Assembly (NCBI GenBank): GCA_031276295.1
Contig: JAISNI010000052.1
Span: 1-64,000 of the forward strand
DNA: 64,000 nt
Origin: Treponema sp.
GTDB taxonomy: Bacteria > Spirochaetota > Spirochaetia > Treponematales > Breznakiellaceae
Reading direction: 5' to 3'
Each line of letters opens with the position of its first letter. The stretch's first letter is position 1. This document shows positions 1,966 to 24,454 of the stretch, piece after piece. A program made the translations under genes and the position numbers. The notes under the pieces are model-generated. The model was not told the DNA's origin. It saw only the letters and a program-made list of their open reading frames with translations, and ran no database searches.

Positions 1966-1968
1966 TAT

Positions 1969-9730: not shown

Positions 9731-10570
9731 TTAAAAGTCTTTCCAAACTTTCATAGCCGAAGCGTATACGGCCTTGGCCGCCTCCTCAAAGCTCATCCTG
9801 GCCAGGGCCGGGTAGAAGGGTTCCACGACCGCGGGGCCCGTATAGCCGAGGGACTTGAGGCCGTCAAAGAATTCGGCAAAGCGCAGCGTACCGTAAGCAC
9901 CGGGAAGGCCCCGTACATTGTCAAGCTGCTCGTCCAGGGGGACGCCCGAGGGGGCATCGTTGAGGTGTACAAGGATAATATTCTTTTCCGTACCCAGTCT
10001 GGCAAAATCTTCGCGCTTCTGACGGGCGGTATCCCAGTGGAATATATCCATTACAATACCGGTATGGCCGGTCTTGATGGCAGATGAAAGTTCCAGCGCG
10101 CCGTCCAGGTTGTGGATAAACTCGTACTTCATGTCCTTACGTTTGGTATAGGGGCCTACAAACTCAAGGCCCAGCGAAATGCCGTTTGCGCCGAGAATAG
10201 CGGCAACTTCGGAGAGTCTTTTCCGGTGCAAATCGAAGTTTTCCCTGTATTCAAGGGTATCCGAGCCGGGCATAATCCAGGTCATACAGCGGCTTAATCC
10301 TACATTTTTGGCGAATTCAGCGTAACGTGGCAGTTTGGCAAGGTCCGCAGTGAAAACAGCTTCGTCGGTACGAAAATTGACCGGCAGGCCGAAACCTGCG
10401 GGAAGCAGTTTGAATTCCTCAAGCAGTTCCCTGGTCTCCGATACGGATAACTCGGCATCACGGTCTATGTTAAACCAGAATCCCTTGTAACCTGTTTTAG
10501 AAACAATCTTTGCGCATTCCCTGAATGACAGGGAAAACCCGATGACATCCGCTGCAAATGCTAAATACAT
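9731..10570 (-). CDS. Sugar phosphate isomerase/epimerase-like TIM barrel protein
   Basis: 279 aa. It belongs to the xylose-isomerase-like/AP-endonuclease-2 TIM barrel superfamily. The expected metal ligands are Glu136 (LGLEFVGPY), Asp175 (IVMDIFHWD), His202 (VHLNDAP) and Glu250 (VVEPFYP). Members interconvert ketoses and other sugars or inositol derivatives (IolE/IolI, tagatose epimerase) using a divalent metal. It may act on a product of the neighbouring TRAP uptake system, but the genes are convergent and the link is only positional. AAGGATAGG precedes the start. A TTGACA lies upstream on this strand near 10642-10647, and TTGATC words recur in the promoter region. Confidence 0.8.
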   Translation of the reverse strand: MYLAFAADVIGFSLSFRECAKIVSKTGYKGFWFNIDRDAELSVSETRELLEEFKLLPAGFGLPVNFRTDEAVFTADLAKLPRYAEFAKNVGLSRCMTWIMPGSDTLEYRENFDLHRKRLSEVAAILGANGISLGLEFVGPYTKRKDMKYEFIHNLDGALELSSAIKTGHTGIVMDIFHWDTARQKREDFARLGTEKNIILVHLNDAPSGVPLDEQLDNVRGLPGAYGTLRFAEFFDGLKSLGYTGPAVVEPFYPALARMSFEEAAKAVYASAMKVWKDF

Positions 10571-10671
10571 ATTGGCACCTATCCTTAAAATGTTTTTATC
10601 AGTATCTTTGATCGATATATTTTTGATCTATAAATAAATGTTGTCAATAATGCTGCTAATAAATGAAGGGC

Positions 10672-10868
10672 GAACGCACTTACTCACTGGGGCTTGAAAA
10701 ACATCAAAATATTGAAGAATTTTTACCACAAAGGCGAAAAATTCGAAGAAGGAAGGAGAAAATTAAGAAAAATTTACGCTTTTCCCTTACTTTTTCGCCT
10801 TTGCGGTCATTTTTTTCTTCAAAATGGTTTGCTGTTGAGGGAATTTTGGCGCACAAAAAGTAAGTGCT
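10672..10868. repeat. MITE-like element with terminal and internal inverted repeats
   Basis: GCACTTACT near 10677 is matched by AGTAAGTGC near 10859. Inside, ACCACAAAGGCGAAAAA and TTTTTCGCCTTTGCGGT pair with one mismatch, so nearly the whole 190-bp unit can fold on itself. It carries no real reading frame. Related ends (GGCACTTACTTTT) occur at 39905-39927, suggesting a dispersed family. Confidence 0.5.
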
Positions 10869-10895
10869 GTTGTCCTGGAAAAAACCGGGATACGC

Positions 10896-10924
10896 TTAAC
10901 AAAGGGTTTTTCTTGTGATATGCT
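10896..10924 (+). promoter_or_regulatory. Promoter of the six-gene accessory operon
   Basis: TTAACA (10896-10901), a 17-bp spacer and TATGCT (10919-10924) predict a start near 10931 and a leader of about 170 nt before the radical SAM gene at 11103. Confidence 0.5.
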
Positions 10925-10938
10925 TTGACTATTAAGAA

Positions 10939-11009
10939 GGGGGAGCAAACAGGTCATGTCCGGGGCTTTTTCCGGCTCTATGCCGTATATGACGGCGGGC
11001 TGCTCCCCC
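10939..11009 (+). promoter_or_regulatory. Structured leader RNA of the accessory operon
   Basis: GGGGGAGCA (10939-10947) and TGCTCCCCC (11001-11009) pair perfectly over 9 bp. They enclose smaller pairings (GTCAT/ATGAC, GCCGT/ACGGC, CCGG/CCGG). The structure begins about 8 nt after the predicted transcript start. A further hairpin, GAAGCC-TGC-GGCTTC, follows near 11017-11031. No U-run follows. The structure could be a regulatory leader or a protein-binding site. Confidence 0.45.
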
Positions 11010-11102
11010 TCGCTCCGAAGCCTGCGGCTTCTCCGCTACCCCCACTATGAGTTTGCAGGTATATGGTATATGTCTGTATTGAACTTTTGAGGAGGAGCAG
11101 CT

Positions 11103-11942
11103 ATGGATCATACAAAAGCAATTGAGATTAATGATGTTTCCGCTTCATTCCTCAGCCGTAAAAATATGGCGGATACGCTCCTCACCTATCCGCAGCGGGA
11201 TTTTTTGCGCTTGCATTTCCGGCGTAGCGATGTTACCAACCTTGGACCAGGCATCCGTTACGGTCTCTGGGTGCAGGGCTGTCTCAGACATTGCGAGGGC
11301 TGTGTTGCGCCGGAATCCCGCATAATGGACGGCGGCAGCGTAATAGCCTTCGACATACTTATCCGTGAAATTTCTCATGCGATCAATAAGCAGCCCCCTG
11401 TCTCCGGTATAACCATCAGCGGCGGCGAGCCCATGTTACAATGGAAAGAATTATTTTATGTCATAAAAAACATAAAACAGGCGTATCCTGATCTTACCAT
11501 ATTGCTCTATACCGGATACTCATGGGAGCAGGATATAGCGCCCTGCCTGCTTGATGATGGTAATGGATGTGTAGAACGGGCCGAGTTTAGCGCATTCTTC
11601 GATGCCCTTGATTGGTGGATAGACGGAGAATATCAGGCGCAAAATGATGACGGACGCGGCTTGCGCGGATCATCGAACCAGAAACTTTACGGGAATATCC
11701 CTATGGGAAACGGAGAAAAAACCCGGTGTTACCAGGGAGACGACGGCCATTGGGTACGGTTGGCGGACAATACGGTTGTTGATTTTCCCGCACCGGAGGA
11801 TGACTCCATGCGGGGATTTGCGCAGAAACCGCGTTTCCCTCAATTTAAGTCAGAACAAGACGGCTTCTATTTGGTTGGTATTCCTACGAAAGAAGCCCTT
11901 GAAACATTCAATAAGCTGGTGGCTTGTAAAGGCTGCATATAA
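11103..11942 (+). CDS. NrdG-like radical SAM protein, first gene of accessory operon
   Basis: 279 aa, with GAGGAGGAGCAGCT before the ATG. The radical-SAM cluster motif is Cys60-x3-Cys64-x2-Cys67 in VQGCLRHCEGC, preceded by TNLGPGIRYGLW. ISGGEPMLQW (the GGEP SAM-binding motif) and LLYTGYSW follow. This is the activase type that installs glycyl radicals (NrdG, PflA), yet no glycyl-radical enzyme gene is nearby. Conserved with its paralogue at 22223-23857 is a C-terminal block, WIDGEYQAQNDDGRGLRGSS and IPTKEALETFN. The reaction is therefore unknown: it may modify a protein of this island or generate a radical in it. Context points to an accessory or conflict role rather than nucleotide metabolism. 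Confidence 0.8.
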   Translation: MDHTKAIEINDVSASFLSRKNMADTLLTYPQRDFLRLHFRRSDVTNLGPGIRYGLWVQGCLRHCEGCVAPESRIMDGGSVIAFDILIREISHAINKQPPVSGITISGGEPMLQWKELFYVIKNIKQAYPDLTILLYTGYSWEQDIAPCLLDDGNGCVERAEFSAFFDALDWWIDGEYQAQNDDGRGLRGSSNQKLYGNIPMGNGEKTRCYQGDDGHWVRLADNTVVDFPAPEDDSMRGFAQKPRFPQFKSEQDGFYLVGIPTKEALETFNKLVACKGCI

Positions 11943-11996
11943 AATCAACCTATTAGTAAAATAACTGAAAGGGTTGAAAAAACAAGGAGAGGAATT

Positions 11997-13466
11997 ATGA
12001 GCGGAAGAAAAGAATACAACATTTCAATTACTAATGTGCAATGGGAAAGTATGCAGCGGGCGGTTCAGACGGCGCAGCATGAAGCTCAAAACGCGGAAAA
12101 AAACCGTCGACAAACCGAAGCTGCGGCGGCGCAGCGTATGCGGGATTTACAGAACCGCTGTAATCAGGAGATACAGGGGCTTACCCAAGAATTGCAAAAT
12201 CAGGCGCGGAACGGAGCGGTAGTTTTGCAGCAAACCCAGGATGCCTTCAATGCCCATATACGCCAACAAGAGCAGGAACAGGCCCAGGCATTGCAGCGGG
12301 CTCAGGAGACCTTCAACCGCCGTATCCACGAACAGGGGATGAAGGAGGCGGAAGCCCGCAGGCTCCTGGCGCAGGAACAGGAGGAAGCCCGCCGGCGTAT
12401 GGAGGAAAGGTTCGTGCGGGAACTGCAAAACCAGAAAGCCGAACTTGAACGAGAGTTGGAAGAAACCCGCAGGGAGATACAAAACCAGGTTACCGATATC
12501 ATCCAGAACATGGAGGCGGAGCGCAGGAGTAAAGCCGAGATCGCCGCATTATGGATAAATCAGGCGCGTCTCCTCCTGAACGATATAGACGAGAAGTACC
12601 GGCACCGGCTCTTTGCTTCTGGGGAGTGGGATAGGCTCACTCGCCGTTTGGAACAAGCGGAAGGTAATAACACCGGTACCGTTGCAATGAGCGAAGCGGC
12701 GCTCAGTACCGCACAGGATGTTTGCAACGATGCGATAGAGCTTCGTGAGCGGGTCATAATCGCCGAGGCCGAGTGGACCGAGGTGTTCAATCACATCAAC
12801 CGGCTTTTGGTGGAGGCGGACAGCCGGATAGCAGCGCTTGAGGGCTTGGAATATACCCTTCAGGAAGATGGTAGAGAGGTCAGGGTTGCCGCAGAAATCG
12901 ACCACTGGTCTCACGGCAGACTTTCCGGGGTGAAAGACGAGATGGCGGTTCTGCAAAGCGCCATTAATAAGCCGGACATCACCTTGGCGCGGTTGCAGGA
13001 TACGGTAGCCCAGATAAATCACCTGGATGAAAAAATAACGGCGGTTGAGTCCGAGGGACGGAATAATTTTCTTGCATCGGAGCTGCGGCGTGAAATAGGC
13101 GCGGAAATGCGGGAAAAACTTCCGGGCTGGAATTTGGAGGAAGCATTTTTTCGCGGCGAGGATGAACGGAATGACCTTCACCTGTTACTTCGGCACAAGA
13201 ATGGCGAAGACCAGCTCTCTTTGACTATCGCGGGCGGACAGGAGGGCAAAGATTCAACCATGGTTACTTCTGACCTCCGCTGCACATCCACACACAGTAT
13301 GGAGACCCGTGACGGCTGGGTTGAAGAAATTACAGGCGCTATTCATGGTTTTGCCCCGGATGCGAGGCGCGTAGCACCCCAGGAATACGCCAACCGTCTG
13401 AACGGCGACCTCCGCGCCTTCGATGTCGAAACACTCAAGCAACCGATTACGGCTCCCAATAAATGA
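11997..13466 (+). CDS. Coiled-coil protein of accessory operon
   Basis: 489 aa. Residues about 20-190 form an almost uninterrupted, Gln/Glu/Arg-rich coiled coil. A helical middle section follows, then a C-terminal globular part (about 365-489) with GWNLEEAFFRGEDERNDLHLL and SLTIAGGQEG. I recognise no catalytic motif. Long coiled coils next to AAA+ and Hsp70 partners suggest a scaffold or a polymerising component. AAGGAGAGGAATT precedes the ATG. It is the second gene of the operon, 54 bases after the radical SAM gene and 12 before the AAA+ gene. Confidence 0.65.
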   Translation: MSGRKEYNISITNVQWESMQRAVQTAQHEAQNAEKNRRQTEAAAAQRMRDLQNRCNQEIQGLTQELQNQARNGAVVLQQTQDAFNAHIRQQEQEQAQALQRAQETFNRRIHEQGMKEAEARRLLAQEQEEARRRMEERFVRELQNQKAELERELEETRREIQNQVTDIIQNMEAERRSKAEIAALWINQARLLLNDIDEKYRHRLFASGEWDRLTRRLEQAEGNNTGTVAMSEAALSTAQDVCNDAIELRERVIIAEAEWTEVFNHINRLLVEADSRIAALEGLEYTLQEDGREVRVAAEIDHWSHGRLSGVKDEMAVLQSAINKPDITLARLQDTVAQINHLDEKITAVESEGRNNFLASELRREIGAEMREKLPGWNLEEAFFRGEDERNDLHLLLRHKNGEDQLSLTIAGGQEGKDSTMVTSDLRCTSTHSMETRDGWVEEITGAIHGFAPDARRVAPQEYANRLNGDLRAFDVETLKQPITAPNK

Positions 13467-13478
13467 AAAGAGGAATAT

Positions 13479-16400
13479 ATGAGCAAGTTTAAGCGCTATG
13501 ATGAACACGGTTTTATCTATGTCTTTGGAAAAGAGAGCCTGTTTTGTGATGATAGGCTTCGGGAGCAAAATCTGGAACAGCATATCGCGCAGGCTCTTCT
13601 TGACGACCAAATCTACGAGTTTATCCTCTTCTATGACCGAAAAGGCGGGATACGTTATGCCAAACCCGAGATGCGGCGGCTTTATTACGAGATGACAGAA
13701 TTGCAGGTTCCGCAGGAGGGAAGATCGAAACAGAGAGCATTACCGATACCGAGACGGAAAGTTCTATCCTCAACACCTAAGCCGGAAACAACGCCGGAAG
13801 CTCAATCAACGGCAGCCGAACCGGAAAGCGAACTGGTGAGTAACCGGGATGCCCTAAAGATATTTGAAGCCGTATTGGAGCGCAAGCGCAGAACCGAGGT
13901 GGGGGCAGCGATTGTCGTCATGGATATGGCGAACTGGCTGGATAATAACGACCTTCAAGACCTGAACTTTTTTTTGGACACCTACAAAAATCACGCGGGA
14001 AACGACCTGATTGTCTTCTGTTTCAAAGGTTTTACCCCGCAGGAAGCCTACCGGAAATATGAACACTCCCCCCTCGCCGGTTATTTAACCGAATGGCGCA
14101 ACTATCTGGATGAAAAGGAGGATATGGGTAAATACCCGAACCTTATTCTTATCGAACCGCCTTCCCGCGCTGAAGTACGCAACCTCCTTCAAAAGAAGCA
14201 TATACTGGGGGAGCTCACCATTCCCCCGTCTCAGTTGGACGCGGTTACCGAAGAAGTATTCCGGGCCGCCCGCAAGGAAAATCTCCCGCTCGCCGGTGTG
14301 CGTGTCAGAATAGAAACGAATTGCAAAGGTAAAACACCTCCGGTTCCCTTTGACCAAGACACCTGTAATGCCGTTTTCGGGGTACAGAAGCCGTCAAAAA
14401 CAAGCAAGGAACTGTTCAATGAACTGGTCGGCATGAATACTCTTCGTTCGGTGTTAGACGGTATTGAAAACGAGGTAAAAAACGCGGGTATTGGTAAAGG
14501 CATACCCGCCTACCGTTCCCGCTTTTCTGAAGTGCGTAATGATGAGTATGAGAAAAAAAAGAACCTGAAACTGCACTTCGCTCTTAAAGGCGCGCCGGGA
14601 ACCGGCAAAACTACAGTTGCCAAGTTGCTGGGCCAGTATCTCTATGAGATTGGCGCACTTTCGAGCGGCCATGTGATCACATGCGTTGCGGATGCCATAA
14701 TGGACAATGTTGTTGGCGGTACGGCGATCAAGACCGATAAAAAGGTACAGGAGGCGTTGGGCGGCGTACTTCTCATTGATGAAATCAGCGGGATAGTGGG
14801 CGATACAAAAGACGAGTCCCGGCGGCAACCACACGCTTTTGCTAAAGAGTTAAACAGTGTATTGCTTAACGCCATGACCATGTATTCTGACCTGTCGGTG
14901 GTCATCGTAGGATATCCCAGGGATGTCGAGGCTTTCATCGCTCTTGACGACGGGTTTGGAAGGCGGTTCAGAAATCACATCCTTCTGCCGGACTACACCG
15001 GTGCGGAACTGGCGGAGATCTTTCGCAGGATGGCGCACAAAGAAAGATATACCGTCGCGCCGGAACTGGAAGACATTCTGGTAGATTTTATGGAGAATTG
15101 GCTGAGGCAAAAAGCCGCCGGCGGATCCTGGGGAAACGCGGGTCTCGTGGAGAATCTAATGCTCGACATAGGGAGAACCGTAGGGAAAGACCGCTGCATC
15201 AGAAAAAAAGACATACCGGATACCATGACAGTCGGCGATACTACCTACGACCTGAAAAAATGTCTGGTCGCCGGTGATAAAACACGCTCACCAACCGAAA
15301 AATTAGACGCCCTCATCGGATTACAGGGAGTCAAGAACAAGATCAGGCTGCTTGCCAAGCAAATCAAAGTAAAAAAAAAGCAGGGCAAAGAAGCCAAGCC
15401 GCCGTTAAACTTCGTATTTACCGGAAATCCTGGAACCGGCAAAACCACGGTGGCGGGAATATTAGGGGAAATCCTGGTAAACATAGGAATCCTGCCTTTT
15501 AGCGAAGTTATCGCACCCGGGAGCGCGGAGTTAATCGGGGCTCATGAGGGGGACACGGAGAGGAAACTCAAAGAGGTATTTGAACGGGCCCGGCACAGAG
15601 TCCTGGTGATTGACGAGGCATATCAGTACATAGGCAAGGGGGAAGTGGATTACGGCAAAAAGGTTATTCAGTATCTGGTAGACTTCACGGGCAACAAGAA
15701 GAACCAGGGGGAAATTTGCATTATTTTGGTGGGATACCCGAAAGAGATGGAGGCGTTTTTAAGTCAAAATCCCGGATTGGGGGGGCGCTTTCCCCCTGAG
15801 AATGAAATTAAGTTTGAGGATTATTCCAATAGTGAGTTGCTTTTAATCTTTAAGCGGCTCTGTGAGCAGGAACAATACACATATACGGCAGAATTCGAGG
15901 AATTGCTGAAACAGTGTATTCCTGTAATCAGGAGGTCCGCCAAAAATTTTAGCAACGCAAGAGAGATGGATAACCTTTTTAAACTCTGCGATCAGATATT
16001 CACATCAAGGGTGTGCGACCTCGAAGAAATCGTCAATGAATTTACCGCCGATGATTTGCGCGGCGCCATGAAGGAAAAGGGTCTTATGATTCCGGGCGAA
16101 CAGGAATCGGTTAAGGAGACCGCAAAGATCCCCTGCCCGCCCAGGGCGCATCTGGAAAAAATTAGCGCCGCCTTGACCGGCTACAATGCCCAGCGCGTGG
16201 AAGAGACGCTCATACGCATACATACAGAATCCGGCGTGGGAAGCGGTTTTCTTATTGCTGAAGACGGGTATGCCGTAACCTGCGCCCATGTGATAAACGG
16301 CCCGGTTTCTATCAAGGCGCGGGTCAGGGTCAAAGACAGTCAGGGCAACCACATCTGCACGGAACACCAGTGCACCGTGGCTGCCGTGAACCAGGCTGCC

Positions 16401-16829
16401 GACATTGCCGTTATAAAGCTTGACGCCGGAACACGGAAGCTGCCCTGCGCCGGACTGTTTCCTGACAAAGGCAAAGGCCTTGAACCGGGGCATACGATAA
16501 AGCTTTGGAGCTATCCCTTCGGAGACCGGTATGACGAACCTTCTCTTTATTCGGGGGCCATTGCCTCACATCAGAAGATAGAAGGGGCGGAAAAAATACT
16601 GCTCAACATAGAAGGGAAGAGCGGCAGTTCCGGCGGCATGTGCATAGACCCGGAGAGCGGTTATGTTGTCGGCGTTTTCTGCGGTTCCGATACGGTGTCG
16701 CGGGAAGGCCTAACAGAGGAAATAAACTTCGCCCGTCCCGTGCAGTATGTCTGGGATATGTTGCCGGAAGCGGACCAAAAGTCAAATCAAGAATCAAAGG
16801 GATTAAGTAATGAAGAAAATAGGAATTGA
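13479..16829 (+). CDS. CbxX/CfqX-type tandem AAA+ ATPase with C-terminal trypsin-like protease
   Basis: 1116 aa multidomain protein. Residues about 120-290 look like a degraded AAA+ module (AAIVVMDMANWL where a Walker B would be, and no P-loop). Two intact CbxX-type AAA+ modules follow: Walker A GAPGTGKTT at 371-379 with Walker B VLLIDE (Asp434-Glu435), and Walker A GNPGTGKTT at 649-657 with Walker B VLVIDE (Asp712-Glu713). Residues about 895-1100 form a chymotrypsin-fold serine protease with His937 (TCAHV), Asp975 (ADIAVIKL) and Ser1051 (GSSGG), so the triad is complete. An ATP-driven remodelling ring joined to a protease suggests conditional proteolysis on sensing a signal. The 3' end overlaps the Hsp70-like gene by 20 bases. 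Confidence 0.85.
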   Translation: MSKFKRYDEHGFIYVFGKESLFCDDRLREQNLEQHIAQALLDDQIYEFILFYDRKGGIRYAKPEMRRLYYEMTELQVPQEGRSKQRALPIPRRKVLSSTPKPETTPEAQSTAAEPESELVSNRDALKIFEAVLERKRRTEVGAAIVVMDMANWLDNNDLQDLNFFLDTYKNHAGNDLIVFCFKGFTPQEAYRKYEHSPLAGYLTEWRNYLDEKEDMGKYPNLILIEPPSRAEVRNLLQKKHILGELTIPPSQLDAVTEEVFRAARKENLPLAGVRVRIETNCKGKTPPVPFDQDTCNAVFGVQKPSKTSKELFNELVGMNTLRSVLDGIENEVKNAGIGKGIPAYRSRFSEVRNDEYEKKKNLKLHFALKGAPGTGKTTVAKLLGQYLYEIGALSSGHVITCVADAIMDNVVGGTAIKTDKKVQEALGGVLLIDEISGIVGDTKDESRRQPHAFAKELNSVLLNAMTMYSDLSVVIVGYPRDVEAFIALDDGFGRRFRNHILLPDYTGAELAEIFRRMAHKERYTVAPELEDILVDFMENWLRQKAAGGSWGNAGLVENLMLDIGRTVGKDRCIRKKDIPDTMTVGDTTYDLKKCLVAGDKTRSPTEKLDALIGLQGVKNKIRLLAKQIKVKKKQGKEAKPPLNFVFTGNPGTGKTTVAGILGEILVNIGILPFSEVIAPGSAELIGAHEGDTERKLKEVFERARHRVLVIDEAYQYIGKGEVDYGKKVIQYLVDFTGNKKNQGEICIILVGYPKEMEAFLSQNPGLGGRFPPENEIKFEDYSNSELLLIFKRLCEQEQYTYTAEFEELLKQCIPVIRRSAKNFSNAREMDNLFKLCDQIFTSRVCDLEEIVNEFTADDLRGAMKEKGLMIPGEQESVKETAKIPCPPRAHLEKISAALTGYNAQRVEETLIRIHTESGVGSGFLIAEDGYAVTCAHVINGPVSIKARVRVKDSQGNHICTEHQCTVAAVNQAADIAVIKLDAGTRKLPCAGLFPDKGKGLEPGHTIKLWSYPFGDRYDEPSLYSGAIASHQKIEGAEKILLNIEGKSGSSGGMCIDPESGYVVGVFCGSDTVSREGLTEEINFARPVQYVWDMLPEADQKSNQESKGLSNEENRN

Positions 16830-18390
16830 TTTCGGAACGACCAACAGCACAATCGCATATCGTAATGAGCAGGGGAATATCAGCGGTTACAGGTTCGGTG
16901 GGGGCGGGGGAAAAGAGTATATTCCCAGCGCAATAGCCTATCCAAAGGACTCCAGGGATTCTGAGGAGGTACGGATTGGGGAGGCAGCCCAAACGGTTCA
17001 CCGGACAGATCCCGATGACTACTACTATTACGAGTTCTACAAGCTGGCGCTTTGCAATTCCTATACACGGATTCTCAACGCCGAACACGGCAAGCGGGTG
17101 ATCGACGTGGTGAAGGATTATCTTCATCTTTTGATAGTCCGGTACAAGTGGGAACAGTTTGTCGCCGAGACCGATAGGAGTGCCAAGCTGGAACACATTG
17201 TCCTTGCATTACCGAATGTCATCAGCGATGACCTTATCGCTGACGCGGAAGCCGTCAAGGACGAACTGCAAGACTTTCTTGATACCGAAGCTGAAGAAAG
17301 CCAGTTTAGGGGAGAGGCAAGTTGTGCCTGTGAATTCTATGTCAGCCGTCCGAAAAACCAGGGTTTTACCGGTACCATCATCGTTGTTGACTACGGCGGG
17401 GGGACACTGGACATCTCGAACTGCCGTATCACGCGAAGCGGTAGCGAGGCGAATATAGCTATTGTGGTTCAAAAAGGCACGAGTGTGGATGATCGGAATA
17501 CTTTTGGGTTCGCGGGGGTGGCTTTTGATCAGGGGGTCGTGAGGTCAATTCCTGAAATAGCCATGCGGAACTTATCAAAGCCGGAATTGGCGGAATATGC
17601 CGTAGCGTTTGAACGCTATAAAATAGAGAATCATGATGAAATCAGGAACAGGCTAAACAAATACTATAGCGAAGGCGGCGACATAAAACCCCTGAATTGC
17701 GAACTAAAAGGGCAGCGTTATACCCTGGATATTCCGTTTCTGCACGATATTTTTGAGCAGGTCAACCAGCCGCTTCTTAAAAAGTATTTTGACGAAGTTG
17801 TTCCTGAAGATGAGCGGCGGAACGGCGCGGCGGCGGAGCAGGATACCTTTAGGGTGCTCTTGATAGGAGGCTTTAGCCAACTGCCCTGTGTGGAAAAAGC
17901 CGTTAAAGACTTTCTGAACATTGATTTAGCGGAACTATACGATAAGCGCATCGCCCACGTAAATGTAAACGAGAAGTTCATCGCGGTTGCCCACGGTGCG
18001 GCAATATATGGGGAAAAAGCAGGGGATGCCCCGGAAATCTGTCTGTTTGAAATCGGCGTCAAAGCCTTTGACGGGCAAGAAACCTATAATGACGTTATGG
18101 TACGGGAAAACACCGAATTGAAAGCGCTGCGAGAGGTTCAGTGGAGCGCTCCCTACTATATTGTCGATCCGGCAAAGGGAAACGTAACCGTTTATTGCCG
18201 GACTTCCGCGGGAGGTGAACAGACTGTCCGCCTGGACATTGCTGAAGTTTGTACCGCAAGCTGCCGCGTGCGGCTTGGCGTTATCACACGGGGCAGGCGC
18301 TACACGCTCCACATCCAAAACATCGATACCAACACGGAATGTATGCGGGACATTTCGGCGCTGATTGCGGACTACAGGAATCGTAATTAA
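16810..18390 (+). CDS. Hsp70-like ATPase of accessory operon
   Basis: 526 aa. The actin/Hsp70 nucleotide-binding fold shows phosphate-1 IDFGTTNSTIAYR at residues 5-17, phosphate-2 VVDYGGGTLDIS near 194-205 and the adenosine motif LLIGGFSQLPCVEKA near 347-361. The remaining 150 or so C-terminal residues do not resemble a canonical DnaK substrate-binding domain. The lid is absent and DnaJ/GrpE genes are not nearby, so this is a divergent Hsp70 probably acting as a nucleotide switch or specialised chaperone within the island. A second Hsp70-like protein lies in the convergent operon. The gene starts within the end of the AAA+/protease gene. Confidence 0.85.
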   Translation: MKKIGIDFGTTNSTIAYRNEQGNISGYRFGGGGGKEYIPSAIAYPKDSRDSEEVRIGEAAQTVHRTDPDDYYYYEFYKLALCNSYTRILNAEHGKRVIDVVKDYLHLLIVRYKWEQFVAETDRSAKLEHIVLALPNVISDDLIADAEAVKDELQDFLDTEAEESQFRGEASCACEFYVSRPKNQGFTGTIIVVDYGGGTLDISNCRITRSGSEANIAIVVQKGTSVDDRNTFGFAGVAFDQGVVRSIPEIAMRNLSKPELAEYAVAFERYKIENHDEIRNRLNKYYSEGGDIKPLNCELKGQRYTLDIPFLHDIFEQVNQPLLKKYFDEVVPEDERRNGAAAEQDTFRVLLIGGFSQLPCVEKAVKDFLNIDLAELYDKRIAHVNVNEKFIAVAHGAAIYGEKAGDAPEICLFEIGVKAFDGQETYNDVMVRENTELKALREVQWSAPYYIVDPAKGNVTVYCRTSAGGEQTVRLDIAEVCTASCRVRLGVITRGRRYTLHIQNIDTNTECMRDISALIADYRNRN

Positions 18391-18400
18391 GGGGAAGCAG

Positions 18401-19285
18401 ATGCTGGATAAAAATACCATTAATAAGGTTACAAACGCGCTGATTGAGGCAGGCAAGAGCAGTACCCCGGAACTGGAAGATCGCCTGAATATCTGTGAAT
18501 CCGTACTCGGCGCCTACATCCCCGCCGATAGGGATTTGGAGAGCCTTCAGGATGCCGATGCCCTTACGAAGTTTTTTGGCAAATATCTTTTCCGTGCTCC
18601 GGATAAACTGTTCAAGCAGGGCAGGGGTGTAATTATCGCCTTGAATCATATTCTGGACGCCCTTGATGAGCGGCGGCGGAGTCTGAACCTGACCGTGGAA
18701 GCACTTGACAGGGTCAAGTCGGAGCTTGCCATGCAGCAGGCACGGATAGAATCTTTTAACGCCTTGCAGGAGGAGTTTGACCATGACAAGGCTGCCTTAT
18801 CGAACCTGACCAAAGAGGCGGCCCGCCTGGAGGCGCGGCAGGATGCCCAGCGGGAAGAACATGGCAAGATACAGAAAGGTATTGATGATGTCAACGAGCT
18901 TATTAAGCAAAAACAGGCGTTCATTGATGACCAAAATCAGGAAATTGCGAAATGTGAAACAGATTTTGAGGAACTACGGCGGCAATTCAATGATGAATTA
19001 ACTGACGGGCAAGTCATAGAGATTATCAGGCTTTGTTCCGGTATGGGCCTGCTTGCCAAAGCCAATCTTGACCTTTTCTGCGAGTATGTTACTGACCATG
19101 CCCTCTGCGAGCGCTTAAAAGCGGCTGCCCTGATTACCACGGAAAGGCTAAAACCTTTACAAGAATATGAGGCGCGGTTGGATTCGGCGTTTGCGGGCTA
19201 CCGGGAATGTCTCCGGGAGATAATCCGGGGCTTACCGCAGTATGCGGGTACCGGCGGCCTTATACATACGGAGGCGAAACAATGA
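18401..19285 (+). CDS. Coiled-coil protein preceding the FGE-fold gene
   Basis: 294 aa from the ATG at 18401, with AGGGGAAGC upstream. An N-terminal helical segment (about 1-90) is followed by a long coiled coil (about 90-210, for example RLEARQDAQREEHGKIQKGI) and a C-terminal helical part. No enzymatic motif is seen. Its stop overlaps the next start by 4 bases, so it is translationally tied to the FGE-fold protein, which itself carries a coiled coil. A physical partnership between the two is a reasonable inference. Confidence 0.6.
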   Translation: MLDKNTINKVTNALIEAGKSSTPELEDRLNICESVLGAYIPADRDLESLQDADALTKFFGKYLFRAPDKLFKQGRGVIIALNHILDALDERRRSLNLTVEALDRVKSELAMQQARIESFNALQEEFDHDKAALSNLTKEAARLEARQDAQREEHGKIQKGIDDVNELIKQKQAFIDDQNQEIAKCETDFEELRRQFNDELTDGQVIEIIRLCSGMGLLAKANLDLFCEYVTDHALCERLKAAALITTERLKPLQEYEARLDSAFAGYRECLREIIRGLPQYAGTGGLIHTEAKQ

Positions 19286-20502
19286 AATGCGGCGTGTGCG
19301 GAAAGCGCGTTACCGGCGCCCAAACTGCTATCTGTGAAGTCTGCGGCACGGCCGTTTTACCCGCACCCTTACTATCGGAAGCGGATATCAAGCAATACCA
19401 GCGGACCTGCGCAATAGGTAAAGCCGCATGGGAGCACGTGTTACGCCTGCGGGAAGAGGCTGAAAAGCTGGCCCTGGATATTGAAAACATGAAAGGTGTC
19501 TCTAAACGGCTGACGCAGGAAGTCATAGAGAAGAAAACAGAAGCCGAGCGGCTGATAAAGGACGCTGAAGACAGGAAGGCGGCATCCGAACATTTGAAAA
19601 AGGAAATTAACAGCAGGAAAGATGAATACGCCGATTTGGAGCAGAAAATTAAACAGGCACAACAGGAGCTTTCTACTCTACGAGCACAGGTAAAAGAAGA
19701 AAGCAAAAGAAAGCTCGCGGCACCGCAGGCCGCGCCCACACAACAGCCGCCGGTTAATTTTGTGTATGTGGAGGGCGGGACATTTTCCATGGGGAGCACT
19801 AACGGGGACGATGATGAGAAGCCCGTGCATACGGTAACGGTGAAGGGCTTTTACATGAGCAAGTACGAGGTAACGCAGAAGGAATGGGCGGAGGTGATGG
19901 GGAATAATCCCAGCTACTTTAAGGGTGATAATCTGCCGGTGGAGAACGTAAGCTGGTACGATGCGATAGAGTACTGCAACCGGCGGAGCGTAAATGAAGG
20001 GTTGACGCCCGCGTACACGATGGACAAAACGCGCGGCGATCCAAACAACCGGAGTCAATATGATACAGTAAAGTGGGTGGTAACATGGAACCGCGGGGCG
20101 AACGGGTACCGGTTGCCGACCGAGGCGGAATGGGAGTACGCGGCCAAGGGAGGGTGCAAGGACTACCCTGTGTATGAGTACAGCGGGAGCAACAATGTGG
20201 CTAGTGTCGGCTGGTATTACGGGACCAGCGGGGGGAGTACGCATCCGGTGGGGACCAAGACGCCGAACAGCCTGGGGTTGTACGATATGAGCGGGAACGT
20301 GTGGGAATGGTGCTGGGACTGGTATGGCGATTATACCGGCGGCGCCCAGACTGATCCAGTGGGCGCGTCCTCGGGTTCGTACCGCCTTCTTCGCGGCGGT
20401 AGCTGGGACTACACCGCGCAGTACGCGCGTTCTGCCGGCCGGAACTGCGACGCCCCGTCTTATCGGTACGACCTTCTGGGCTTCCGGCTCGTGCGCCCTT
20501 AG
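19282..20502 (+). CDS. Zinc-ribbon/coiled-coil protein with C-terminal FGE-sulfatase (C-type lectin) fold, putative DGR target
   Basis: 406 aa from the ATG at 19282 (GGAGGCG upstream). Residues 1-25 hold a zinc ribbon (Cys3, Cys6, Cys18, Cys21). The segment PLLSEADIKQY is shared with the minus-strand protein at 23870-24454. A coiled coil spans about 55-145, then the FGE-sulfatase domain from about 160 to the end (GGTFSMGS, KYEVTQKEWAEVMG, YRLPTEAEWEYAA, GNVWEWCWDWY, RGGSW, GFRLVRP). The catalytic cysteines of true formylglycine-generating enzymes are absent after RGGSW, so it should bind rather than oxidise. The C-terminal residues match the layout of DGR-diversified lectin folds such as TvpA of Treponema denticola. 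Confidence 0.85.
   Translation: MKCGVCGKRVTGAQTAICEVCGTAVLPAPLLSEADIKQYQRTCAIGKAAWEHVLRLREEAEKLALDIENMKGVSKRLTQEVIEKKTEAERLIKDAEDRKAASEHLKKEINSRKDEYADLEQKIKQAQQELSTLRAQVKEESKRKLAAPQAAPTQQPPVNFVYVEGGTFSMGSTNGDDDEKPVHTVTVKGFYMSKYEVTQKEWAEVMGNNPSYFKGDNLPVENVSWYDAIEYCNRRSVNEGLTPAYTMDKTRGDPNNRSQYDTVKWVVTWNRGANGYRLPTEAEWEYAAKGGCKDYPVYEYSGSNNVASVGWYYGTSGGSTHPVGTKTPNSLGLYDMSGNVWEWCWDWYGDYTGGAQTDPVGASSGSYRLLRGGSWDYTAQYARSAGRNCDAPSYRYDLLGFRLVRP
20384..20502 (+). other. Putative DGR variable region (VR) at the end of the FGE-fold gene
   Basis: Between GGTAGCTGG and CTGGGCTTCCGG, the 13 codons at lectin-surface positions are GAC TAC ACC TAC GGC AAC TGC GAC GCC TAT TAC GAC CTT. All end in a pyrimidine, while the intervening framework codons (GCG, CAG, CGT, TCT, CCG, CGG) do not share this bias. 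This is what adenine-specific mutagenesis of AAC/AAT template codons produces. I see no template repeat or reverse transcriptase gene in the window. Confidence 0.6.
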
Positions 20503-20522
20503 TTTAAAGGCTCAAGTTAGGA

Positions 20523-20610
20523 CGAAGCGGCGAAATGCCCGCCCCCGCCGGGCGGCGGGGGTACGAAGGGGCCGGGACGGCCCCGAAGTAGAGGGCATTG
20601 AGCCGCTTCG
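20523..20610 (+). ncRNA. Highly structured 88-nt element downstream of the variable region
   Basis: Outer stem CGAAGCGGC/GCCGCTTCG (20523-20531, 20602-20610) is joined through a symmetric GA/GA internal loop to stem AATGCCC/GGGCATT (20534-20540, 20593-20599). Inside are a hairpin CCCCCGCC-GGGC-GGCGGGGG (20542-20561) and a second one with TAC/GTA, a GAA/GAA loop and GGGGCC/GGCCCC (20562-20590). Tandem G.A internal loops between perfect helices argue for a selected RNA fold. It begins 21 nt after the stop. It may be a DGR target-side structure, a 3' mRNA element or a separate RNA. Confidence 0.55.
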
Positions 20611-20624
20611 GACGGTCGGAGCAG

Positions 20625-20705
20625 GCGGCATGGACACTCCCCGGCGTAACGCTTTTAGATCGCACGCCTCGGTTCTCGCTGTCTGAACAGCCCGATTCAT
20701 GCCGC
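20625..20705. other. Second inverted repeat between the convergent operons
   Basis: GCGGCATG (20625-20632) pairs with CATGCCGC (20698-20705) around a 65-nt interior. Together with the preceding 88-nt fold, it fills nearly the whole gap between the two convergent operons. There is no gene here and no obvious T-run for termination in either direction. Confidence 0.4.
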
Positions 20706-20721
20706 TCATTGCTTTTGCCTC

Positions 20722-22239
20722 CTAAAAAATATCTGTTTTAGCAAATCCAACTTCGATGCTGTTCTGGTCATTATCGTAAATATGCAACTCCAAAATTCCG
20801 TCCTGCAAAAGCCTGAATTCAGCGGCAAAGGAACGCTTTGTTGTCTCAATGCCGTCTACGGGAGTTACGGGAACTTCAACACCAAACATCGGCTCGCGCC
20901 CGTTAAAAGGCGTCCAATCAACGCCCTTGGGCTCATCCGTCTCATAAACATCAAAATGAATGGCTGTTTGCGTTTTATGAAGTGGCACATAATATTTCCG
21001 TGCACTGATATATTTTCCGTTGTCATGAATCTCCATTTCAGAATCCCGAAATAATATATTGCTAATTTGGTTTGTATCATCATCCCGTTTGTGACTATCA
21101 ACCCCGTAAGTATGAGTCGCTGTAGAAACCAGCCAATCGAACGTCGCATAAATCGCGGCCCCAAAAGCAATCGCCCGTTCGGGCTTGTCCAGCACTATCT
21201 CCTTATTGGGAAACTCCTGCCTGAGTCTGTTTATTACCTGCGGCATTTTACTGGCTCCACCAACCAACACTATCGTGTTTATGTTCGATTCATTTTCCCC
21301 GGTTCCTTCTTTATAACGGGCGATCACATCTTTAACCACGCTGACTGTCATATCAAGCAAATAACGGGTCATGTGCTCAAACTGCTGCCTGGAAATTTTA
21401 AGTCTATATGAATCTTCGCCACTGTCGGGGAAAAAGCCCCGCTTGACTTCATCCTCTGTGGAAAGCATGTGCTTAATCTGAATAATCTCTCTCTCGAATT
21501 GCTCCTCATCTATACTGCCTTGAAGCCGTATATCATTCTCCCGGATAAAATAATCCCGTAATACCTTATCCCAGTCTGTCCCCCCGACTTTTGTATCCCC
21601 GCTTTGAATACGGGTTTTAAATTTCTGCGGTAGCGCCGTGTCATAGCGGACAATAGCGGTGTCGAAGGTACCACCCCCTAAATCGTAAGTCAGTATCGTC
21701 GTTCCATTGTTAATATTTTGATGTGTGGAAAAATAACTTAACGCGGCGGCAACCGGTTCATCAATGATCTTAACTGATGTACGGGACAGGCCGGATGCTT
21801 CACAGGCGGCTTCCAGAATTGTCTGCCGGTATATATTGGAACCCGACATCGCCGGGACGGCTATTACTATGTTTTCAAGTTTAGGGGAAATTGGTATATC
21901 AGTAGCCTTCTGCTGCGCAAGCTCAATAATATGCCTGATGATCTTGACGATAATTTCTTTCGCTGAAAATTTACGTCCGTCAAGGTTGTAAATAATTTTG
22001 GAAATAGGCTTCCCACTGCGCATCTCTTTCTTGATATATTTAACACCGTAAGACGGATGCGCTTGACACCGTCTCTTGGCCTCAACACCTGTCCTTTCTC
22101 CGATTTCCGCCTCATAATAAAAAATCGAAGGAATCCCGTCCCGGTAGTCATCATCATTTGATAAAAGCGATTCAGGCGCATTGCCGCGTACCGCCGCCGG
22201 AAAAGAAAAACATGTGCCAAAGTCAATCCCAAGCTTCAT
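20722..22239 (-). CDS. Hsp70-like protein of convergent operon
   Basis: 505 aa from the ATG at 22239 (AAAAAGGAC upstream). A longer in-frame extension lies inside the preceding gene and is rejected. Motifs: MKLGIDFGTCFS at residues 1-12, IDEPVAAALSYF, LTYDLGGGTFDTAIV and VLVGGASKMPQVINRL, in the canonical Hsp70 order. The ATPase domain is closer to DnaK than that of the plus-strand paralogue. The C-terminal 120 residues are short of a full substrate-binding domain and contain an unusual HKTQTAIHFDVYETDEPKG strand region, which may be a minimal beta sandwich. The start overlaps the radical-SAM/coiled-coil gene by 17 bases. Likely role: nucleotide-dependent chaperone or switch of the same island. 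Confidence 0.85.
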   Translation of the reverse strand: MKLGIDFGTCFSFPAAVRGNAPESLLSNDDDYRDGIPSIFYYEAEIGERTGVEAKRRCQAHPSYGVKYIKKEMRSGKPISKIIYNLDGRKFSAKEIIVKIIRHIIELAQQKATDIPISPKLENIVIAVPAMSGSNIYRQTILEAACEASGLSRTSVKIIDEPVAAALSYFSTHQNINNGTTILTYDLGGGTFDTAIVRYDTALPQKFKTRIQSGDTKVGGTDWDKVLRDYFIRENDIRLQGSIDEEQFEREIIQIKHMLSTEDEVKRGFFPDSGEDSYRLKISRQQFEHMTRYLLDMTVSVVKDVIARYKEGTGENESNINTIVLVGGASKMPQVINRLRQEFPNKEIVLDKPERAIAFGAAIYATFDWLVSTATHTYGVDSHKRDDDTNQISNILFRDSEMEIHDNGKYISARKYYVPLHKTQTAIHFDVYETDEPKGVDWTPFNGREPMFGVEVPVTPVDGIETTKRSFAAEFRLLQDGILELHIYDNDQNSIEVGFAKTDIF

Positions 22240-23857
22240 AATTGTGTCCTTTTTGCTGCCGGCTTTCTGCCTTTTCCAGGAGTCGAACGACCGCCTGTTT
22301 AATAACAATACCGTCTGCCTTATACCCTTCGGATACAAGTTCTTTTATAACATTTGTTGTAGAAGATGATGAATTATCTACATGATCTTCATCGGGGTTA
22401 TATGTATCGCCGCTTTGTGGGCGGACCGGCGTAAAGCCCCATTGTTTTATAAAATCGTCGATTTTGAGTATGATTGATTCCCACACACTGGAAAGTTTAT
22501 TTAATTCTTTTTTTCTTTCTTCCGGTATTTTCGGCAAAAGCAACTGTTTTTCAATTTCAATTGATTGTTTTCCAGCAATTTTTTTAAGGCTGATACAAAA
22601 ATCAATAAGAAATTTTAAATTATCTTTATTTTTATTCCGGTACTTTACTAATTCCTCCTGTTCTCTGCGTGAACTATCAAGGGCTGTCTTGTTTTGTCTC
22701 AATTCTGCATCGAGCTTGTCTATCTGTTCCTGTAAACGCACATTCTCTGAAGATAAGACTTCATAGGTATTCTTGGCATCAGCAAGCTGGCTCTGTAAAT
22801 GACTATTAGTCCAATTTAATGTACTATTGGTATGCTGAACGTCAGCAAGCTGAATCCGTAAATCATTATTAGTCCGATTTAATGTACTATTAGTACAGTT
22901 GGTTTCATCAAGCACTGTTTGCATATCCTGAACTTGTTGTTGTAAGTCCTGGCAGCGTTTAACTAGTTTATTATACTCATTTTGCTGTAAATCAAATTCA
23001 GCCTTATTTATTTCGGCTTTCGCGGCCGGCTGTGGCTCCAAAGTTGACTGATCACTTGTTGTATTTACCGATGAGCTACGTTTGTCTTTGTTATCTTCAA
23101 TAGGCTTGTTAAAAACATCAAGTGTTTCTTTAGTAGGAATTCCGATAATACAAGTAATGTCCTCTCTAACTTGGATACTTCCGATTCTCGGCGATGTACT
23201 AAAATTATACATAGGATCCGAATCTGTAGGGTTATAAGAAATTCTGTCATTATCATTTAACCTTATCCATACACCCCCTTCTTGTTGGTGGCATAAAACT
23301 TTTTTCCCATAGTAAGAAAGGTTTCCATATAACTGCTGATTTGAAGAACCGCGCAGTCCTTTCCCGTCATCTCTCTTAGCCTGGTAGTCGCCGTCAATCC
23401 AATAATCAAGACAATTCCAAAAATCATGGAACTCATTTACATCTGTATTATAGGTGTCGGGATGATAATAACCGCGTATTGGTTCTATATCAGCCCCCCA
23501 TGAGTAACCTGTATAGAGTAATACGTTAATATTTGGATTTCTCTTTTTTACTTTTCCCATAATATAGTACAATTCTTTCCACTGTAAAACTGGTTCGCCG
23601 CCGCTGATTGTTATACCGTCTATATTCTTCGAGCCAATAATTTCAGCAATGATGTCATCACATGGAACAAGATTGCCTCCGTCTTTCGGCTGGGCATTCG
23701 GAGCCAGGCAGCCTTCGCAGCGTTTATTACAGCCCTGTACCCAGATACCATAACGGCGGCCTGGTCCCAGATTTGTTATACCATTGCAGATAAAATGCAG
23801 CCTGAGCGTTTTTTCCCGTTTATAAGTGAGAATTTCATTGATTTCCTTACCTTCCAT
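22223..23857 (-). CDS. Radical SAM protein fused to a coiled coil
   Basis: 544 aa, with AAAGAGGTG before the ATG. Residues 1-250 are a clear paralogue of the 279-aa radical SAM protein at 11103: TNLGPGRRYGIWVQGC with cluster cysteines 43, 47 and 50, then ISGGEPVLQWKELYYI, LLYTGYSWGADIEP, WIDGDYQAKRDDGKGLRGSS and IPTKETLDVFN. A low-complexity linker and a long coiled coil at about 280-420 follow, containing a 21-residue repeat (NSTLN-x-TN). In the plus-strand operon these two functions are on separate genes, so this may be a fusion of radical SAM and coiled-coil partners. The substrate is unknown; no glycyl-radical enzyme is nearby. Confidence 0.8.
   Translation of the reverse strand: MEGKEINEILTYKREKTLRLHFICNGITNLGPGRRYGIWVQGCNKRCEGCLAPNAQPKDGGNLVPCDDIIAEIIGSKNIDGITISGGEPVLQWKELYYIMGKVKKRNPNINVLLYTGYSWGADIEPIRGYYHPDTYNTDVNEFHDFWNCLDYWIDGDYQAKRDDGKGLRGSSNQQLYGNLSYYGKKVLCHQQEGGVWIRLNDNDRISYNPTDSDPMYNFSTSPRIGSIQVREDITCIIGIPTKETLDVFNKPIEDNKDKRSSSVNTTSDQSTLEPQPAAKAEINKAEFDLQQNEYNKLVKRCQDLQQQVQDMQTVLDETNCTNSTLNRTNNDLRIQLADVQHTNSTLNWTNSHLQSQLADAKNTYEVLSSENVRLQEQIDKLDAELRQNKTALDSSRREQEELVKYRNKNKDNLKFLIDFCISLKKIAGKQSIEIEKQLLLPKIPEERKKELNKLSSVWESIILKIDDFIKQWGFTPVRPQSGDTYNPDEDHVDNSSSSTTNVIKELVSEGYKADGIVIKQAVVRLLEKAESRQQKGHNYEAWD
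22781..22906. repeat. 63-bp tandem duplication inside the coiled-coil coding region
   Basis: AGCAAGCTG recurs at 22781 and 22844, and the flanking sequence (ATTAGTCC, ATTTAATGTACTATT) repeats with it at a period of 63 bp, or 21 codons and three heptads. The two units have diverged at several bases, so the coiled coil grew by whole-heptad duplication. Confidence 0.7.
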
Positions 23858-23869
23858 TAGACACCTCTT

Positions 23870-24454
23870 TCATTTATCATTCCAGTTTTCCGCAATATCC
23901 AAAGTTACTGATTTAATGTTCCTAATCGTTTCAGCATCCAGATTACAGTCAGAAAAAGCATGGGCTTTAATTTTTTTTATTCTATCAGGGATTCCTTTTA
24001 TTGAACATAACTTTATACATTGAAAAAAAGCATAGTTGCCGATTGTACCAAGGCGCGATTTTCCTTCAATAAATACCTGTTCCAACTCTCGGCACGCCCA
24101 AAACGCCCCGTTATTATCCTCATCCTTGCTCTCATCCGGGTTATTGCCGATAAACTCAACGGAAGAGGGTATCAATACTTTTTTTATCCGGCTGCGCGCA
24201 AAACAATGGCCGGCAATCACACGGATATTCCCCGGCACAACGGCAATCTCTGAGTTGCCCTTATACTTTACTATAACATCCCCATCTATCTCAAATTGGG
24301 CAGGATCAAACAGTTTTTGCCGGAATTGATTGAGTTTCTGTTTGTATTGCTCTATATCGAATTCAGAAATCAAAGGGAATTGTAAGACTGAATTACCACA
24401 AAATTCACAGGTATCGCTATTTTCAGTATTAATACCGCAGACACCGCATTTCAT
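23870..24454 (-). CDS. Zinc-ribbon protein with BspA-type leucine-rich repeats
   Basis: 194 aa from the ATG at 24454; a GTG three codons earlier sits too close to GAGGTG. Residues 1-20 form a zinc ribbon (Cys3, Cys6, Cys16, Cys19), followed by FPLISEFDIEQYKQKL, near-identical in layout to the N-terminus of the FGE-fold protein at 19282. Residues about 60-190 carry LRR_5/BspA-like repeats (IRVIAGHCFARSRIKKVLIP, GTIGNYAFFQCIKL, IKKIKAHAFSDCNL). LRRs of this type bind proteins. So it looks like an alternative recognition protein built on the same adaptor head. It is the first gene of the three-gene minus-strand operon, 12 bases before the radical SAM gene. Confidence 0.75.
   Translation of the reverse strand: MKCGVCGINTENSDTCEFCGNSVLQFPLISEFDIEQYKQKLNQFRQKLFDPAQFEIDGDVIVKYKGNSEIAVVPGNIRVIAGHCFARSRIKKVLIPSSVEFIGNNPDESKDEDNNGAFWACRELEQVFIEGKSRLGTIGNYAFFQCIKLCSIKGIPDRIKKIKAHAFSDCNLDAETIRNIKSVTLDIAENWNDK

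What the first reader, a model, noticed from the sequence alone, without database searches (positions are those of the whole stretch)
11103..24454. Two convergent operons forming a possible undescribed sensor/AAA+/protease/Hsp70/radical-SAM system
Six plus-strand genes (radical SAM, coiled coil, tandem AAA+ with trypsin-like protease, Hsp70-like, coiled coil, zinc-ribbon/FGE-fold) meet three minus-strand genes (zinc-ribbon/LRR, radical SAM/coiled coil, Hsp70). The two operons are paralogous in pieces: both radical SAM proteins share the same long blocks, both have an Hsp70, and both recognition proteins share an N-terminal zinc ribbon plus a PL-S-E-x-D-I-x-Q-Y motif. FGE-fold, trypsin and NTPase domains recur in bacterial conflict systems, but I know of no described system with this composition. 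My inference: interchangeable recognition proteins plug into one core that remodels and cleaves targets.
Basis: partly seen in the sequence, partly recalled or inferred. Interest (0 to 1): 0.93.

Follow-up and report, generated by a model that had tools for sequence, protein, structure and literature searches.

The report
Chaperone-protease machine with swappable receptors
Two facing gene clusters in a likely spirochaete genome carry genes for a radical enzyme, a coiled-coil protein, an AAA-type ATPase with a protease-like domain, and Hsp70-type chaperones, and the core gene trio recurs, combined with other parts, in bacteria of several phyla; together they likely form an undescribed, possibly anti-invader, machine with exchangeable recognition proteins.

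Summary
All nine genes are real and as described, with one addition: the minus-strand radical-SAM protein ends in a GrpE-like domain (GrpE is Hsp70's nucleotide-exchange partner). The two outside relatives of that part have the same rSAM-GrpE fusion; one is from a MAG named Tannerella, another phylum. A core of radical SAM, coiled-coil protein (p2 family) and multi-AAA+ protein recurs: p2 is in 13 of 80 rSAM loci from named genomes, and the AAA+ protein in 11 of those 13; the other two contigs end right after p2. Three of those AAA+ proteins carry the same trypsin-like domain. Around the core, parts are exchanged: Hsp70s in 5 of 6 loci of one type, TerD proteins in 6 of 7 of the other. Zinc-ribbon proteins with RCC1, MORN or unrecognised tails occur in 4 of the 6, where the window has FGE-fold and LRR tails. 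This supports the modular picture, but a common zinc-ribbon family across phyla is not shown. The nearest published kind is the NTP-dependent conflict systems of Kaur et al. 2020; the window lacks the GTPase, GAP1, MoxR and vWA parts that define their classes. It is a rare, patchy, probably undescribed variant. Function is untested; defence is inferred.

The parts
11103..11942 (+). p1: radical SAM protein (NrdG/PFL-activase-like, CxxxCxxC at residue 60)
   Evidence: Pfam PF13353 97.8 bits; CLRHCEGC; only solved chains matched are PFL-activating enzyme
11997..13466 (+). p2: long coiled coil + helical bundle + C-terminal alpha/beta part; hallmark family of the core
   Evidence: No Pfam family; family in 13 of 80 rSAM loci; AlphaFold2 pLDDT 78.1
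13479..16829 (+). p3: N-terminal module without Walker A + two SpoVK/CbbX-type AAA+ domains (Walker A at 371 and 649) + C-terminal trypsin-like domain (about 915-1095)
   Evidence: Pfam AAA, Trypsin_2; NCBIfam SpoVK 287.6 bits, below its cut-off; His/Asp/Ser positions aligned in 4 of 4 related domains
16810..18390 (+). p4: divergent Hsp70-like ATPase (nucleotide-binding half only recognisable)
   Evidence: PF00012 43.2 bits, best stretch profile positions 186-372 of 599; relatives in L045 and L050
18401..19285 (+). p5: coiled-coil protein, no recognised family
   Evidence: no homologue detected in the related loci
19282..20502 (+). p6: zinc ribbon + PLLSEADIKQY + coiled coil + FGE/C-type-lectin-fold module (TvpA-like)
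   Evidence: PF03781 190 bits; Treponema denticola TvpA 2y3c 165.8 bits; aligned FGE cysteines absent
20722..22239 (-). [quoted passage not shown]
   Evidence: PF00012 146 bits, profile 2-372 of 599
22223..23857 (-). p8: radical SAM (CNKRCEGC) + long coiled coil + GrpE-like C-terminus (residues about 366-525)
   Evidence: PF13353 91.9 bits, GrpE 21.1 bits below cut-off, 24.8/26.3 bits and over the cut-off in the genome search; homologues P0131 and P0132 with GrpE over cut-off
23870..24454 (-). p9: zinc ribbon + PLISEFDIEQY + BspA-type leucine-rich repeat
   Evidence: LRR_5 56.7 bits; N-terminus matches p6

Best explanation
The two facing operons likely encode one modular, predicted cytosolic, ATP-driven protein-handling machine that would use exchangeable zinc-ribbon receptors to recognise a molecule, and then unfold, cut and radical-modify target proteins, most likely as an anti-invader (conflict) system. 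Proposed working, step by step. (1) Receptors p6 and p9 would bind ligands through a C-type-lectin/FGE-fold or leucine-rich module (inferred) and dock through the zinc ribbon and the PLxSExDIxQY helix that they share (sharing shown, docking inferred). (2) Hsp70s p4 and p7, with the GrpE-like end of p8 as exchange factor, would hold receptor or client in a resting state and set the threshold (domains shown, role inferred). (3) p2 would scaffold p1 and the p3 ring (constant gene neighbours shown, contact inferred). (4) The p3 AAA+ ring would thread the released client to its fused trypsin-like domain (catalytic residues shown, ring and activity inferred). (5) p1 and p8 would carry out radical chemistry on a protein or peptide, probably the chaperone-held client, as suggested by the rSAM-GrpE fusion and the closest solved relative, a protein-activating enzyme (inferred).
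For: Trypsin-like domain on the AAA+ protein in L046 Bacteroidaceae, L050 Ruminococcus and L073 Deltaproteobacteria, triad positions aligned in 4 of 4 including the window. Hsp70 in 5 of 6 non-TerD core loci against 10 of 67 loci without p2 (Fisher p 0.001). rSAM-GrpE fusion in P0131 and in P0132 of a Tannerella MAG; a separate GrpE-like protein beside Hsp70s in L050. Zinc-ribbon proteins with different tails beside the core in 4 of 6 non-TerD loci against 8 of 67 others (p 0.006). Rare and patchy: p2 in 1 of 296 genomes of the window's phylum (itself) and 1 of 291 of L050's class (L050's own genome). Hsp70+GrpE+FGE also sit together in a GAP1-N2 conflict-type system of this same genome. No transmembrane-like stretch in any of the nine by hydropathy.
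Against: No defence system matched as a whole; PADLOC hits are single domains (trypsin-like RT-Protease 46.9 bits, IetA 43.8, LmuA 36.9 and weaker) or coiled coil. No homologue was confirmed in viral contigs. In 4 of 5 leave-one-locus-out tests an unrelated zinc ribbon outscored the left-out receptors; only the L045 receptors beat all 23 controls. p5 has no detectable counterpart. L048 has the core without Hsp70, L050 and L073 have no zinc-ribbon protein in the stretch held, and the TerD-type loci have neither. The p2 match of L073 is partial (profile 25-252 of 477, 52.6 bits). The Hsp70 excess over control loci is weak once two dropped control loci are counted: 15 of 80 against 2 of 44, p 0.02. 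GrpE assignment in p8 is near the cut-off and its model is unreliable there. No toxin, nuclease or pore domain was found among the nine. Linkage of the two operons rests on this locus and one inferred contig.
Confidence: 0.45

Rival explanations
1. A dedicated protein-repair or activation system of anaerobes: the NrdG/PFL-activase-like rSAM would make or restore a glycyl-radical or other radical-modified enzyme, and the CbbX/SpoVK-like ring with Hsp70/GrpE would remodel and remove damaged copies.
For: Best NCBIfam model is NrdG (94.8 bits, below its cut-off of 126.1) and the closest solved relative is the PFL activase; CbbX-type AAA+ proteins are enzyme activases (recalled).
Against: No glycyl-radical enzyme among the nine proteins or the ten flanking ORFs scanned (other window ORFs were not scanned); distribution is very patchy; exchangeable repeat-domain proteins fit sensing better than repair of one enzyme.
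Confidence: 0.2
2. A stress-response relative of TerD systems: the core serves general metal or oxidative stress, the Hsp70 version handling misfolded protein, with the FGE and LRR proteins as adaptors.
For: The same rSAM-p2-AAA+ core sits beside 2-4 TerD genes in 6 of 7 loci of the other type.
Against: No TerD domain among the nine proteins; the trypsin profile and the zinc-ribbon pattern find nothing in the TerD-type loci.
Confidence: 0.2
3. Two unrelated operons that happen to face each other: p7-p9 is a separately acquired, lower-G+C unit with its own function.
For: Clear G+C difference; rSAMs p1 and p8 fall in two sister clades, the p8 clade including a Tannerella protein; convergent rather than co-transcribed.
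Against: p6 and p9 share their N-terminal ribbon and motif; in one other contig p2 and p8 homologues probably lie together; Hsp70 is part of 5 of 6 non-TerD core loci.
Confidence: 0.15

Closest known systems
GAP1-N2-type GTPase-centric conflict systems (Kaur et al. 2020, PMC7159879, section 29 read)
   Same: Described with Hsp70 and GrpE, with a second Hsp70 lacking the peptide-binding part, with FGS(FGE)-fold effectors and with zinc-ribbon GTPases, in different lineages; a GAP1-N2 locus with GrpE, two Hsp70s and an FGE-fold protein is in this same genome. L048 joins the rSAM-p2-AAA+ core to a DO-GTPase2 protein.
   Different: No GAP1 and no GTPase among the nine proteins; the engine is a SpoVK/CbbX-type AAA+ protein with a fused trypsin-like domain, plus rSAM and p2.
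FtsH ternary MoxR-vWA systems (Kaur et al. 2020, section 21 read)
   Same: An inactive AAA+ domain before an active one and an associated radical SAM protein.
   Different: No MoxR, vWA, FtsH-type AAA+ or ubiquitin-like parts recognised among the nine.
[quoted passage not shown]
   Same: Hsp70-like proteins, coiled coils, SpoVK-family AAA+ protein, LRR.
   Different: No McrB GTPase, McrC/DUF2357, nuclease or vWA among the nine; the words 'radical SAM' do not occur in that paper's main text.
Treponema denticola TvpA, a diversity-generating-retroelement variable protein
   Same: Best solved match of the p6 C-terminal module, 165.8 bits.
   Different: p6 shows no near-copy in the neighbourhoods of the two retroelement RTs tested in this genome, and has a zinc-ribbon/coiled-coil front.

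Membership tests
GAP1-N2 GTPase-centric conflict system | GAP1-N2/GAP1-M protein in the operon | tested here: not met
   No GAP1 domain in the nine proteins; the same test is positive at L196 in this genome
GAP1-N2 GTPase-centric conflict system | TRAFAC-type GTPase with zinc ribbons | tested here: not met
   No GTPase family among the nine (for p3 the best 25 of 31 families were shown)
GAP1-N2 GTPase-centric conflict system | Hsp70 plus GrpE (the theme of about 14% of them) | tested here: met
   p4, p7 HSP70; p8 GrpE-like near the cut-off
MoxR-vWA ternary systems (FtsH class) | MoxR AAA+ and vWA domain pair | tested here: not met
   Neither domain listed for the nine proteins
CoCoNuT | McrB-type GTPase and McrC N-terminal domain (DUF2357) | tested here: not met
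   Neither listed among the nine
Formylglycine-generating enzyme | Two catalytic copper-binding cysteines (identity recalled) | tested here: not met
   p6 has Y and A where the aligned FGE 6s07 has the two cysteines
DGR variable protein | Variable region paired with a template repeat near a retroelement RT | tested here: not met
   Against the contigs of two RTs, every ungapped 70-base window of the p6 region had more than 12 non-A mismatches; the genome is 83% complete and a third, partial RT was not tested
Hsp70/DnaK | Actin-like nucleotide-binding domain | tested here: met
   PF00012 over its cut-off for p4 and p7
Hsp70/DnaK | Canonical substrate-binding domain | tested here: not met
   Best stretches stop at profile position 372 of 599 in both
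GrpE | GrpE profile over its curated cut-off | tested here: inconclusive
   p8 21.1 bits (cut-off 25.8), 24.8/26.3; homologues P0131 26.1 and P0132 34.9
GrpE | Nucleotide exchange on the partner Hsp70 | not testable with these tools
   needs biochemistry
NrdG (anaerobic ribonucleotide reductase activase) | Curated NrdG score | tested here: not met
   TIGR02491 94.8 (p1) and 77.1 (p8) bits against a cut-off of 126.1
Radical SAM superfamily | CxxxCxxC cluster motif | tested here: met
   p1 residue 60, p8 residue 43
Known defence systems (PADLOC-DB 2.0.0) | A complete set of system proteins | tested here: not met
   Only single-domain or coiled-coil matches

The most novel reading that the evidence does not exclude
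The machine performs radical chemistry on proteins while Hsp70 holds them: the rSAM-GrpE fusion p8 modifies a client at the moment of nucleotide exchange, and the mark decides whether the AAA+/trypsin ring p3 destroys it. That would be a chaperone-coupled, proteolytic radical-SAM immune engine with plug-in receptors, a kind of protein surveillance that I know of in no bacterium.
Probability: 0.22. Interest if true: 0.9.

Novelty: new variant of a known kind. Interest (0 to 1): 0.66.

Why it matters
If it works as proposed, it adds a further engine (a SpoVK/CbbX-type AAA+ protein with fused protease) to the MoxR- and GTPase-driven conflict systems. It would show the same chaperone and receptor parts being re-used between engines, and it links radical-SAM chemistry to Hsp70 through a direct fusion with a GrpE-like domain. 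That fusion turns a vague association into a single testable protein.

Tried and rejected
p3 as the genome-contig query found nothing, so the rSAM alignment was used. p3 in 147 relatives: 49 matched, and 20 neighbourhoods that I chose and fetched had no hit to the other eight proteins. A viral-contig scan with the rSAM alignment confirmed nothing. p5 could not be matched to the coiled-coil genes upstream of rSAM elsewhere.

Control rows dropped before a count: the 42 control loci left out L186 and L196, fetched together with the others but chosen wide because they hold Hsp70 genes; with them Hsp70 is in 2 of 44 controls and p is 0.02 instead of 0.001. Leaving out L073 changes the two Fisher tests to p 0.004 (Hsp70) and 0.002 (zinc ribbon).
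Full report
What is there. Six plus-strand and three minus-strand genes converge at about 20.5-20.7 kb. Pfam identifies two radical SAM proteins, a protein with two AAA+ domains and a trypsin-like domain, two Hsp70-type ATPases, an FGE-fold protein and a BspA-type LRR protein; p2 has no match and p5 only coiled-coil matches below the cut-offs. The cluster motif is intact in both rSAMs and both AAA+ domains have Walker A and B motifs. By hydropathy none of the nine has a transmembrane-like stretch (highest 19-residue mean 1.75); two membrane proteins of the window, used as controls, reach 2.65 and 2.74. The host is likely a spirochaete: the closest named p2 homologue (P0122, 83% identical) is from a 'Spirochaetaceae bacterium'.

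The C-terminus of p8 matches the GrpE profile over almost its whole length: 21.1 bits, below the cut-off; 24.8 bits, or 26.3 with neighbours in frame and over the cut-off of 25.8. Apart from the window's own protein, two proteins match p8 residues 240-544 at E 0.001 or better: P0131 (62% identical) and P0132 from a Tannerella MAG (54%), and both carry rSAM plus GrpE over the cut-off. L050 has a separate GrpE-like protein (35.2 bits) beside its Hsp70s. The AlphaFold2 model of p8 is good for the rSAM part, which matches pyruvate formate-lyase activating enzyme (Foldseek E 1e-7). It is unreliable over most of the GrpE-like end (pLDDT under 70 from about residue 401, under 50 from 480), so structure neither supports nor contradicts that assignment.

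Recurrence elsewhere. In these 80, profiles find p2 in 13 loci (in L073 only half of the profile matches) and p3-like AAA+ proteins over 100 bits in 11, all among the 13. The two exceptions, L054 and L061, have contigs that end 50 and 399 bases after p2. Two types appear. In six loci (L044, L045, L046, L048, L050, L073), five have Hsp70 and four have zinc-ribbon proteins; their tails are RCC1-like repeats (L044 and three in L045, one of these weak), MORN repeats (L046) and an unrecognised region (L048). In the other seven (L054, L057, L061, L062, L064, L066, L068), TerD genes are present in six (none in L062), with no Hsp70 and no zinc ribbon found. Among the 67 loci without p2, Hsp70 occurs in 10 and an N-terminal zinc ribbon in 8; Fisher p is 0.001 and 0.006 against the first type. 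Against stretches picked for other reasons, Hsp70 occurs in 15 of 80 rSAM loci and 0 of 42 controls, but 2 of 44 when two control loci that I had left out are counted (p 0.02). The controls hold 12 zinc-ribbon ORFs, all in four AAA+ loci of relatives. These tests treat loci as independent, and the types were named after seeing the data.

The trypsin-like domain. L046, L050 and L073 carry it at the end of the AAA+ protein, as in the window; the trypsin profile does not match the other related AAA+ proteins. The histidine, aspartate and serine positions align in all four. The N-terminal module of p3 lacks a Walker A motif and aligns loosely with the same region in eight relatives.

Receptors. 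p6 and p9 share their zinc ribbon and the motif PL[LI]SExDIxQY. The p6 tail is closest, among solved structures, to Treponema denticola TvpA, a retroelement-diversified protein (165.8 bits), and lacks the cysteines aligned with those of formylglycine-generating enzyme. The p6 tail also matches 16 places on 14 other contigs of the genome, one 78% identical, so this module is probably shuffled within the genome. Against a single receptor family across phyla: in 4 of 5 tests, profiles built without a locus scored an unrelated zinc ribbon above that locus's receptors; only the three L045 receptors beat all 23 controls.

History. p1 and p8 belong to two sister clades, the p8 clade including the Tannerella protein (support 99/97; their union 95/93). 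p7-p9 are poorer in G+C than p1-p6. The p2 profile finds only the window's own genome among 296 of its phylum and only L050's own genome among 291 of its class, within the limits of that search's word-based first look. This patchiness suggests horizontal spread, which is inferred.

Comparison with what is known. Searches of the held paper library with combinations of the component names (one search returned none; on TerD systems) returned two works that bear on it: Kaur et al. 2020 (PMC7159879; passages, sections 21 and 29 read) and the CoCoNuT paper (PMC11090510; passages, section 10 read). PMC8195603 was seen only as a listing. Kaur et al. describe Hsp70 with GrpE, and FGS-fold effectors, in GAP1-N2 GTPase systems, and a radical SAM protein in FtsH ternary systems. 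Contig C166 of this genome encodes GAP1-N2/GAP1-M, an FGE-fold protein, Hsp70-vWA, Hsp70, GrpE and DO-GTPase2, a system of that kind. The window shares the chaperone and FGE parts, but none of GAP1, GTPase, MoxR, vWA or McrBC is listed for its nine proteins. L048 in Kordia, with the rSAM-p2-AAA+ core next to a DO-GTPase2 protein, links the two worlds. I therefore file it as a new variant of a known kind; most subscription papers are not in the library, so a description elsewhere is possible.

Mechanism. The most likely reading is a receptor-triggered, chaperone-gated AAA+ protease with radical-SAM modification, serving defence. Shown here: gene content, intact catalytic motifs, conserved neighbours, the rSAM-GrpE-like fusion. 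Inferred: that the parts form one complex, what the receptors bind, the order of steps, and defence as the purpose. Radical-SAM repair or activation of an enzyme and a TerD-like stress role are live rivals.

Noticed in passing
L196 (own genome C166:44000-62000), 841-16712: A GAP1-N2 GTPase-centric system with FGE-fold protein, Hsp70-vWA fusion, Hsp70, GrpE and DO-GTPase2 (Pfam).
   Followed up: partly
L182 (own genome C177), about 4344-6646: A prophage-like diversity-generating retroelement: RT with GSQVSQ and YMDD, an Avd-like ORF (by eye) and a template/variable pair 51 of 60 identical, 8 of the 9 differences at template A. A second such RT lies at L162 (C187).
   Followed up: partly
L024, L025, L027, L028 (relatives G044, G079, G030, G033): Tandem SpoVK-like AAA+ genes with N-terminal zinc ribbons, beside kinase-, PP2C- and FHA-like and zinc-ribbon ORFs (labels by eye), without a match to the window's rSAM or Hsp70: apparently another AAA+ system.
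   Followed up: partly
L099, L112, L114: An NrdG-like rSAM gene directly followed by a gene for an 808-928 aa protein with an internal Hsp70 nucleotide-binding domain: a minimal rSAM-Hsp70 pair in other bacteria.
   Followed up: partly
window 30194-33004 and 29034-30197, minus strand: Ammonium transporter fused to Hpt and histidine-kinase ATPase domains, next to a PAS-guanylate-cyclase protein.
   Followed up: no
own genome, 16 places on 14 other contigs: Many FGE-domain genes, several with export-like N-termini (by eye), with tails 43-78% identical to that of p6; module shuffling is likely.
   Followed up: no
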